From NCBI RefSeq assembly GCF_023555055.1, contig NZ_JAMJPL010000008.1, forward strand, positions 124,001 through 188,000: DNA of 64,000 bases. The letters are read 5' to 3'. Origin of the DNA: Marinobacter sp. ATCH36. Lineage in GTDB: Bacteria; Pseudomonadota; Gammaproteobacteria; Pseudomonadales; Oleiphilaceae. Below are positions 3,779-5,237 of the stretch, one piece after another. A model generated the notes under the pieces. It ran no database searches and was not told the origin of the DNA. It worked only from the letters and a program-made list of their open reading frames with translations. Within the stretch, counting starts at the first letter, position 1. Every line of letters starts with the position of its first letter. A program made the position numbers and the translations under genes.

Positions 3779-3801
3779 TCGGATTACGCTTTGCTAATCC
3801 G
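3779..3801. repeat. REP-like palindrome, left part, interrupted by the IS element
   Basis: TCGGATTA and TAATCCG flank an 8-base loop (3787-3794). The next bases of the palindromic unit (ACCTACGG) are found on the other side of the IS at 5218-5225. Joining 3801 to 5218 restores a perfect TCGGATTA / TAATCCGA hairpin followed by CCTACGG. A related intact copy is at 29469-29496. Confidence 0.75.
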
Positions 3802-3804
3802 TAT

Positions 3805-3818
3805 ATGGTCTCCTCCCC
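3805..3818 (+). repeat. IS subterminal inverted repeat (transposase-distal end)
   Basis: ATGGTCTCCTCCCC, exact inverted copy of 5197-5210. The first 13 bases also recur directly at 5123-5135, across the transposase start codon. Confidence 0.85.
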
Positions 3819-4060
3819 GTTTGCAAGGTCTCAGTGCTCGATGTCAGGGACAGGTTTGCGTCCGTATATCCGGCCTGTTTAACAAGGCGGCTTTGTCGCC
3901 TCTGGCCTTGATGGAAAGATCCGCGCCTACCGTCCTTATCGACCTAACGGCCTCTCGGGCCCTCGGATTAATCAGGTTTTCGGCAGGCCGGTCTGACCTG
4001 TTATGCCATCAATCGCTGCGACCCTCGCAACCTGAGGGAAGGTGATCTTCTTACTCGTTT
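3819..4060 (-). ncRNA. predicted bridge RNA (seekRNA) of the IS1111-type element
   Basis: The non-coding region downstream of the transposase, read on the transposase strand, folds by eye into stem-loops. The target loop spans 3925-3988. A stem GCCTGCCG/CGGTAGGC (one G-U pair) encloses guide 1 (TAATCCGA, complement of 3963-3970), an apical GGCC/GGCC hairpin, and guide 2 (TAGGTCG, complement of 3940-3946). Guide 1 equals the left target at 3795-3801 plus the A at 5218. Guide 2 is the complement of the right target at 5216-5222. Nearer the element end, 3861-3869 repeats the left junction (TCCGTATAT, 3798-3806). Positions 3838-3844 (TCGATGT) complement the right junction at 5212-5218. These would be the donor guides. 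The exact 5' and 3' ends are not determined. The bridge-RNA role is known for the family; this assignment is inferred from the matches. Confidence 0.7.
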
Positions 4061-4089
4061 ACTTCGTGTCGTTTGTCTATTTCATTCAC

Positions 4090-5124
4090 TCATCCAGCCA
4101 GCTGTTGCTCCGGTGGCTGGTAATGTTCGCCTCGGGCGATGATCACCCAGGCAATGCGAACCAATTTATTGGCCAATGCCACCGTGGCTTTGTTGAAGCC
4201 CCGCTCAGCCTTCAGCCGCTGGACCCATCGGCTTAGCCGGTCGGTCTTCCTGTCAGCCCGGGCAGCCACCGATCGGGCTCCGTGGACCAGCTGGGCACGC
4301 ACGTACGGGTCGCCTCGCTTGCTGATCCCCAGCAGTACGTCTTTGCCACCCGTGCTGTTTTGACGGGGAACCAGTCCCAACGCCGCTGCGGCGTCTCTGC
4401 CTCTGCGGAACTGGCGGCCATCGCCCATCCAGCCCTTCAGCAGGCTGGCGACCACCTCGCCAACGCCCGGTATCGCTTGCAGGCGCTGACAGGTCTCGTC
4501 CTGTTTAGCCATCCGCTGCACTTGCTGGTCGTACCAGGCCAGTTCCTTCTCTACCGCCAGAAAATGTTCATATTGGCGATTCAGTAACTCTCGGGCCCGG
4601 TCCGTCAACCCATTGTCGGCGTCCCCCAGAGCGAGCGGTAGCTCCCGGCGTAAAGCCGCTATTCCCTGAGGAATGATCACACCGTACTCGGCCAACAGCC
4701 CCCGCAACTGATTGCTGATCCGGGTCCGATCCTTGCTCATTCCCTGGCGCAGCTTGTGCAGCATCTGTTCATCCTGCTGCTCAACACTCTTGACCGGCAC
4801 CGGGCGGATCCGCCCGTGCTCGCTTGCCTCCGCGATGGCCTGCGCGTCGTTGTAGTCGTTCTTCTGCCCTCGCAGATACCCCTTGACGTGCTGTGGCGGT
4901 AAAAGCTCAACCTGGTGTCCCAGATCCCGGATCTGACGAGCCCAGTAGTGGGAACTGCCACACGCCTCCAGGGCGACCGTGCAAGGCTCCAACCGTACCA
5001 GCTGCTCCAACAATTGCTTGCGGCGCACTTTGCGCTTCCAGCCGCACTGACCTCTCGGGCCAAGCCCGTAAAGGGCAAAGGTGTTCTTTGCGAGGTCAAT
5101 GCCGATCGTTGTAAGCTTGGACAT
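4090..5124 (-). CDS. IS110-family (IS1111 group) transposase / bridge-RNA-guided recombinase
   Basis: A 344-residue DEDD recombinase. The RuvC-like N-terminal domain carries Asp10 (IGIDLAKNTF), Glu53 (ALEACGSS), and Asp90 and Asp93 (KNDYNDAQA). The C-terminal Tnp domain carries IPGVGEVVASLL and the Ser257 nucleophile in PRQNSTGGK. All catalytic residues and normal family length are present, so the enzyme is probably active. The start is fixed by GGGAGGAG 5 bases before ATG; this ribosome binding site is itself a copy of the terminal inverted repeat. The family excises as a circle and reinserts at sites specified by the element's own RNA. It is a recent insertion by the criterion that the flanks can be rejoined without loss. 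Confidence 0.93.
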   Translation of the reverse strand: MSKLTTIGIDLAKNTFALYGLGPRGQCGWKRKVRRKQLLEQLVRLEPCTVALEACGSSHYWARQIRDLGHQVELLPPQHVKGYLRGQKNDYNDAQAIAEASEHGRIRPVPVKSVEQQDEQMLHKLRQGMSKDRTRISNQLRGLLAEYGVIIPQGIAALRRELPLALGDADNGLTDRARELLNRQYEHFLAVEKELAWYDQQVQRMAKQDETCQRLQAIPGVGEVVASLLKGWMGDGRQFRRGRDAAAALGLVPRQNSTGGKDVLLGISKRGDPYVRAQLVHGARSVAARADRKTDRLSRWVQRLKAERGFNKATVALANKLVRIAWVIIARGEHYQPPEQQLAG

Positions 5125-5135
5125 GGTCTCCTCCC
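5123..5135 (+). repeat. internal direct copy of the IS terminal repeat, overlapping the transposase start
   Basis: ATGGTCTCCTCCC is identical to the first 13 bases of the repeat at 3805. On the transposase strand it reads GGGAGGAGACCAT, that is, Shine-Dalgarno plus the first two bases of the start codon. Confidence 0.75.
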
Positions 5136-5196
5136 ACTCTGTTCTGATAGGAAAATTCTCCTTCCCTATCCTGGCGCATTGCGACGCCGATTAGGA

Positions 5197-5210
5197 GGGG
5201 AGGAGACCAT
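5197..5210 (-). repeat. IS subterminal inverted repeat (transposase-proximal end)
   Basis: GGGGAGGAGACCAT on the plus strand, exact inverted copy of 3805-3818, about 7 bases inside the predicted junction. Confidence 0.85.
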
Positions 5211-5237
5211 CACATCGACCTACGGTTTGTAGTGCGG

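What the first reader, a model, noticed from the sequence alone, without database searches (positions are those of the whole stretch)
3835..3870. Candidate donor-binding guides that copy the element's own two ends
Positions 3861-3869 (TCCGTATAT) repeat the left junction 3798-3806 exactly. Positions 3838-3844 (TCGATGT) are the exact complement of the right junction 5212-5218. Both span the CG core and lie after the target loop in transcript order, as donor guides should. The donor loop stem is less clear by eye than the target loop. The left match extends three bases into the flank, which may indicate that the true boundary or core is slightly different.
Basis: partly seen in the sequence, partly recalled or inferred. 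Interest (0 to 1): 0.75.

Follow-up and report, generated by a model that had tools for sequence, protein, structure and literature searches.

The report
Jumping element's RNA copies its ends

Summary
The window holds an IS1111-group element of the IS110 family (3802-5217, minus strand).

3861-3869 is the left donor guide (LDG). The homologous segment tracks each element's own right end: position -2 matches in 92/94 clusters (permutation mean 36, maximum 50) and core base 1 in 80/94 (mean 43.5). Held out: 23/23 and 20/23.

3838-3844 is not the right donor guide (RDG): the 7-mer is near chance (15% of shuffles) and shows no signal in relatives. A covariation scan puts the RDG at 3909-3915, upstream of the LDG. 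It is complementary to left-end bases 7 and 6 in 72/91 and 76/91, held out 12/21 and 20/21. The window's own RDG fits its left end imperfectly.

Guide order is RTG-LTG-RDG-LDG, reversed within each loop relative to IS621; RDG and LDG flank a covarying 4-bp stem. The flank "extension" is the CG core plus two target bases; a handshake role is not established.

New member of a known kind.

The parts
3802..5217 (-). IS1111-group element, 1416 bp
   Evidence: sTIRs plus 7-bp left and 3-bp right extensions; a second 94% copy in the same genome has the same ends and target sequence
4090..5124 (-). DEDD recombinase (transposase), 344 aa
   Evidence: Pfam DEDD_Tnp_IS110 and Transposase_20; NCBIfam NF033542 'IS110 family RNA-guided transposase', 327 bits against a cut-off of 140
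5211..5217 (-). left-end 7-bp extension CGATGTG, beginning with core CG
5197..5210 (-). left sub-terminal inverted repeat ATGGTCTCCTCCCC
3805..3818 (-). right sub-terminal inverted repeat GGGGAGGAGACCAT
3802..3804 (-). right-end 3-bp extension ATA
3800..3801 (-). core CG on the right-flank side
3821..4030 (-). structured RNA core downstream of tnp (extent inferred from the outer part of the consensus fold)
   Evidence: consensus fold of 22 relatives; single-sequence fold of 3803-4060 z -3.9; no Rfam match at gathering scores
3964..3971 (-). right target guide (RTG) TTAATCCG
   Evidence: TAATCCG is the reverse complement of the right-flank CGGATTA; RTG columns covary with right-flank bases 4 and 5 in 65/91 and 63/91
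3938..3946 (-). left target guide (LTG) TAGGTCG plus AT
   Evidence: 9-nt match to the left junction; LTG columns match the five left-flank bases in 73-84 of 90
3909..3915 (-). right donor guide (RDG) TCCATCA, corrected position; in this element it pairs with the left end at 4 of 7 positions plus one G-U
3904..3907 (-). 5' strand of the 4-bp stem between RDG and LDG
   Evidence: pairs in 91/91, 90/91, 91/91 and 90/91 relatives, two of the four positions varying with compensation
3872..3875 (-). 3' strand of the same stem

Best explanation
This is an IS1111-group element whose 3' non-coding region encodes a bridge RNA (seekRNA) with four guides in the order RTG, LTG, RDG, LDG. The first two read the landing site (GTAGGT-CG-GATTAG). 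The last two read the element's own joined ends (ATATA-CG-ATGTG). [quoted passage not shown] the RDG (3909-3915) is complementary to the top strand of the left end. Shown by sequence comparison: which segments covary with which end bases, and their order. Inferred: that they base-pair with a circular intermediate inside the recombinase, as in IS621.
For: LDG: right-end position -2 matched in 92/94 clusters (permutation mean 36.3, max 50), core 1 versus right flank 80/94 (43.5, max 56), core 2 versus right flank 73/94 (37.5, max 49). In 45 sister pairs the LDG base changed in 7 of 9 pairs where the right-end base differed and in 0 of 36 where it did not; core 1: 14 of 24 against 0 of 21. RDG: left-end base 7 complementary in 72/91 (expected 35.4), base 6 in 76/91 (42.2); sister pairs 12 of 16 against 4 of 29, and 7 of 12 against 3 of 33. 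Held-out elements, rules fixed beforehand: LDG -2 23/23 (13.4), core 1 20/23 (9.6), core 2 17/23 (8.1), RDG base 6 20/21 (10.1), base 7 12/21 (5.3). RDG and LDG flank a 4-bp stem (90-91 of 91, compensatory changes at two positions), and RTG and LTG flank an equivalent hairpin. Six uninterrupted GTAGGTCGGATTAG sites lie in the same genome, none for the reversed control pattern.
Against: Permutations do not preserve relatedness; the sister-pair test only partly repairs this. The RDG core positions do not covary with the left end (base 2: 32/91 against 29.3; base 1: 52/91 against 48.0), and among the 22 clusters below 37.9% identity base 6 is not significant (20/22 against 18.4). Left-end bases 3-5 are nearly invariant, so they carry almost no test. 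In the window itself the RDG mismatches left-end bases 6 and 1. 13 of 107 clusters and 4 of 27 held-out clusters lacked the LDG anchor, and 2 further held-out ones the RDG anchor. In print, an 82-nt form of the ISEc11 RNA, described as holding the target matches, supported transposition at 42% (PMC11187229); RTG to LDG spans 111 nt here, so an RNA of that length would hardly hold all four guides.
Confidence: 0.86

Rival explanations
1. One reading: right donor guide at 3838-3844, downstream of the LDG, i.e. order LDG then RDG as in IS621.
For: Exact 7-nt complement including the core. A CATC at the same place occurs in several close relatives.
Against: 15% of shuffles give as much. No excess over permuted or shuffled left ends in 94 clusters or in the 22 closest. 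The segment is unpaired in the consensus fold and lies outside the RDG-stem-LDG unit. The closest relatives with left end CGATGAG (L006, L115) keep an A at the tail position opposite base 6, so it does not follow the T/A difference.
Confidence: 0.06
2. The RNA guides only target choice; the ends are recognised by protein binding to the sub-terminal inverted repeats, and the matches to the ends are remnants of capture or of related templates.
For: 82-nt RNA sufficed for ISEc11, and the authors state that which domain binds the ends is unknown (PMC11187229). Left-end bases 3-5 (ATG) are nearly invariant, as a protein-recognised sequence would be.
Against: End bases that differ between elements are followed by the RNA, in opposite strand senses at the two ends, also in held-out elements.
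Confidence: 0.06
3. The LDG is a handshake guide too: it is built to match the integrated right junction (end plus core plus first target base), not only the circle.
For: The window matches 9 nt across right end and flank. First base after the core equals the right-flank base in 42/94 (27.3 permuted, p 0.001; stratified by guide 31.9, p 0.004) and in 24/44 of the ATA class (12.9, p 0.0008). Where flank and left end differ it follows the flank in 35 of 77 and the left end in 12.
Against: Second and third bases show nothing. Sister pairs: RNA changed in 13 of 29 pairs where the flank base differed against 5 of 16 where not, and both members matched in only 2 of 29. Held out 7/23 against 4.8, p 0.18.
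Confidence: 0.15

Closest known systems
IS1111-group seekRNAs (ISEc11, ISPa11, ISKpn4, ISPst6; PMC11187229, text parts 1-5 of 9 read)
   Same: DEDD recombinase, sub-terminal inverted repeats with 7/3 extensions, non-coding region downstream of tnp, top-strand complement (RTG) before bottom-strand match (LTG).
   Different: In the parts read, that paper describes target matches only; here donor guides are added and tested by covariation.
IS1111 bridge RNAs predicted by Durrant et al. (PMC11208160: section 12 and passages read; the figure was not visible)
   Different: Manual inspection of three IS1111 elements; here 94 clusters plus 23 held out, with permutations and sister pairs, and an explicit RDG position.
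IS621 bridge RNA (PMC11208158 and PMC11208160, passages read)
   Same: Two loops, four guides, each including a dinucleotide core; guides on both strands.
   Different: IS621 order is LTG-RTG-LDG-RDG and the RNA is in the left end; here right guide precedes left guide in both loops and the RNA is in the right end. IS621 handshake guides are not established here.

Membership tests
IS1111 group of the IS110 family | DEDD recombinase with the IS110 catalytic domain and the C-terminal Transposase_20 domain | tested here: met
   PF01548 2.7e-18, PF02371 4.2e-19
IS1111 group of the IS110 family | sub-terminal inverted repeats with 7-bp left and 3-bp right extensions | tested here: met
   14-bp perfect repeat, CGATGTG and ATA
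IS1111 group of the IS110 family | long non-coding region downstream of tnp | tested here: met
   271 nt between the stop codon and the right repeat; 86 bp from left repeat to tnp start
IS1111 group of the IS110 family | target guides: top-strand complement before bottom-strand match | tested here: met
   TAATCCG at 119, TAGGTCGAT at 143 of the non-coding region; covariation in relatives
IS1111 group of the IS110 family | insertion without extra bases into a fixed target | tested here: met
   joined flanks GTAGGT-CG-GATTAG occur uninterrupted six times in the same genome
IS1111 group of the IS110 family | circular intermediate and RNA bound to the recombinase | not testable with these tools
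   needs bench work
IS621-type bridge RNA | left donor guide that follows the donor end | tested here: met
IS621-type bridge RNA | right donor guide that follows the donor end | tested here: met
   in relatives at left-end bases 6 and 7; imperfect in the window and not for the core bases
IS621-type bridge RNA | guide order left then right within each loop | tested here: not met
   right then left in both loops
IS621-type bridge RNA | handshake guides | tested here: inconclusive
   base after the LDG core: in favour, not

The most novel reading that the evidence does not exclude
The base after the LDG core is a handshake guide on the left donor guide, so that the IS1111 RNA is built around the integrated right junction (end-core-target) and hands over the opposite strand first compared with IS621, in keeping with the reversed guide order in both loops.
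Probability: 0.13. Interest if true: 0.7.

Novelty: new member of a known kind. Interest (0 to 1): 0.48.

Why it matters
Two 2024 papers leave open whether IS1111 RNAs read only the target or also the donor ends. The comparison here gives family-wide evidence that both ends are read, places the right donor guide, and shows the same right-then-left order in both loops. That makes donor reprogramming of IS1111 recombinases directly testable: the guides to change and the end bases to change with them are named.

Tried and rejected
2) Handshake reading of the flank extension: first looked good in the 16 nearest relatives, weakened by sister pairs and held-out data, kept as a rival. A comparison with the RTG-coded base gave 49/91 (27.2 permuted, p 0.0003) for one RTG column and nothing for the two neighbouring ones (23/91 and 22/91), and the RTG columns are in mixed register in that alignment, so it is not counted. 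3) The first pairwise alignment of the two own-genome copies was made with one copy in the wrong orientation and is not used; the 94% identity comes. 4) A search for ISEc11 itself, to place donor guides against its mapped 82-nt and 154-nt RNAs, was not successful: searches gave other E. coli IS110-family elements, none identified as ISEc11. 5) viral contigs gave four loci.

Rows dropped: 114 loci plus the window, 103 passed the tnp-length filter; 242 sequences including the window (three entries are the same element: window, L001, L005), 238 with a tnp match, 172 with ends called; dropped 12 partial tnp, 44 without an ATG..CAT repeat pair, 10 with short flanks. 107 clusters, 94 with the LDG anchor, 91 aligned (the other three failed the distance, length or N filter); 75 new loci, 41 with ends called (30 without repeat pair, 4 partial), 27 clusters not in the first set, 23 with LDG anchor, 21 of them with RDG anchor. 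The sister-pair test used 45 pairs down to 41.5% protein identity.

Full report
What is there. The region is an IS110-family element of the IS1111 group on the minus strand. The recombinase gene is 4090-5124 (344 aa; Pfam DEDD_Tnp_IS110 and Transposase_20; NCBIfam 'IS110 family RNA-guided transposase'). The sub-terminal inverted repeat is 14 bp and perfect; the left extension is CGATGTG and the right one ATA, which fits the 7/3 rule given in PMC11187229. The element is therefore 3802-5217, 1416 bp, with left flank GTAGGT and right flank CGGATTAG. A second copy, 94% identical, sits elsewhere in the same genome with the same ends and the same target sequence; its recombinase frame holds one TAG. 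The joined flanks GTAGGTCGGATTAG occur uninterrupted six times in the genome, at the start of inverted repeats of the type GTCGGATTA...TAATCCGAC; the backwards control pattern occurs zero times. The genus is probably Marinobacter: same-genus hits coincide with Marinobacter loci (inference).

The observation. Both matches are as described. The 9-mer at 3861-3869 is unusual (0.8% of 4000 shuffles); the 7-mer at 3838-3844 is not (15%).

Left donor guide. I collected relatives by transposase similarity, called ends from the inverted repeats (172 elements) and reduced them to 107 clusters by shared 8-mers of the non-coding region. The three bases after it follow the 3-bp right extension of the same element: ATA, ACA, AGA, GTA and GGA extensions go with ATA, ACA, AGA, GTA and GGA in the RNA, with two exceptions at the variable position (92/94; permutation mean 36.3, max 50). 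The next two follow the core (80/94 and 73/94 against the right flank; 87/94 and 59/94 against the left end). Where left-end and right-flank core bases differ, the guide follows the left end at core base 1 (13 of 20, against 6 for the flank) and the flank at core base 2 (31 of 51, against 17 for the left end). Among 45 non-overlapping sister pairs the RNA base changed in 7 of 9 pairs in which the right-end base differed and in 0 of 36 in which it did not.

Right donor guide. A scan of end and flank positions that vary against all well-filled RNA columns in 91 aligned clusters recovered the LTG (73-84 of 90 at the five left-flank bases next to the element), the RTG (65/91 and 63/91 at right-flank bases 4 and 5) and the LDG, and also a segment nobody had pointed to in this window: NN-CAU-C before a conserved GG, complementary to left-end bases 7 and 6 (72/91, expected 35.4; 76/91, expected 42.2). 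Examples: TAATGTA with UACAU, GAATGAT with AUCAU, TAATGAC with GUCAU, CGATAGG with UUUAU. In sister pairs the RNA changed in 12 of 16 pairs where base 7 differed (4 of 29 where not) and 7 of 12 for base 6 (3 of 33). Against this: the two core positions of this segment do not covary with the left end (32/91 and 52/91 against 29.3 and 48.0), bases 3-5 are too constant to test, and in the window itself the segment (3909-3915) mismatches bases 6 and 1 and has a G-U at base 7. The RNA also holds an upstream GATG that can pair with the CATC of this guide (20 to 22 of 22 in the close set). It does not explain the signal: its column agrees with left-end base 6 in only 49/90, against 76/91 for the guide column, and base 7 lies outside that helix.

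Held-out test. Rules were fixed on the first set and applied to 27 clusters fetched later: LDG -2 23/23 (13.4 permuted), core 1 versus flank 20/23 (9.6), core 2 versus flank 17/23 (8.1), RDG base 6 20/21 (10.1), base 7 12/21 (5.3). One held-out element has a right extension of a class not in the first set, CTA, and its RNA reads CTA.

Architecture. The order in the transcript is RTG 3971-3964, LTG 3946-3938, RDG 3915-3909, LDG 3869-3861. A 4-bp stem lies between RDG and LDG (pairs in 91, 90, 91 and 90 of 91, with C-G, T-A, A-T and G-C forms at the two inner positions), and a hairpin lies between RTG and LTG (84/90, 88/90, 84/91, 86/91). Both loops are thus built as right guide, hairpin, left guide. 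IS621 is left then right in both (LTG 50-58, RTG 77-80, LDG 123-130, RDG 157-165; PMC11208158, passages). The reversed order of the target guides in IS1111 is published (PMC11187229); the donor guides share it here.

The flank extension. The LDG matches CGGA of the flank: two core and two target bases. A role as handshake guide is suggested by permutation (42/94, p 0.001; 24/44 in the ATA class, p 0.0008) but not by sister pairs (13 of 29 against 5 of 16) or held-out elements (7/23, p 0.18). I leave it open.

How it probably works. By analogy with IS621 (established there by structure), the RNA would bind recombinase dimers, the target loop reading GTAGGT-CG-GATTAG and the donor loop reading ATATA-CG-ATGTG of the circle, with exchange at CG. 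The pairing segments and their order are supported here by sequence comparison; binding, cleavage and exchange are inferred. The published sufficiency of an 82-nt RNA for ISEc11 (PMC11187229) is the main result against a strict need for the donor guides.

What is known. PMC11208160 (section 12; figure not visible) already predicts donor pairing in IS1111 elements by inspection and notes a multi-loop. My literature searches (open-licence PMC papers only, no preprints) listed no family-wide test of IS1111 donor guides, but supplements, subscription papers and preprints were not covered. Hence: new member of a known kind, with added comparative evidence.

Noticed in passing
window 5123-5135: A third copy of the inverted repeat (13 nt) overlaps the ribosome-binding site and start codon of tnp. 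In relatives with other repeat sequences the start region often carries their own version: 21 of 106 clusters share at least 9 nt with their own repeat, permuted mean 3.0, maximum 8. Possibly self-regulation by the recombinase.
   Followed up: partly
L003, G000:C21:185719-185817 and adjoining bases: A roughly 98-bp derivative: left flank, left extension, repeat and leader up to the internal repeat copy, followed by an inverted copy of the left extension and left flank, so that both of its ends are left ends.
   Followed up: partly
relatives: The second core base differs between left end and right flank in 51 of 94 clusters (often TA against TG), and the LDG follows the flank in 31 and the left end in 17. 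The guides thus often disagree with the donor's own core.
   Followed up: partly
window about 4006-4010 with 3910-3914: An upstream GATGG in the RNA can pair with the right donor guide (five pairs, 20 to 22 of 22 in the close set): a copy of the donor sequence inside the RNA that may cover the guide.
   Followed up: partly
L002 (G000:C20): Second copy in the same target sequence with one TAG inside the recombinase frame.
   Followed up: no
L201, L200, L140, L212, L138, L193: A lineage whose right flank reads TGTTA and often TGTTAGGC or TGTTATG; from recall this resembles integron attC sites, a known IS1111 target.
   Followed up: no
L242:2001-2151: An E. coli stretch about 72% identical to the window's bridge-RNA region and right end, with no annotated gene under the match and an IS110-family gene about 550 bp upstream.
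   Followed up: no
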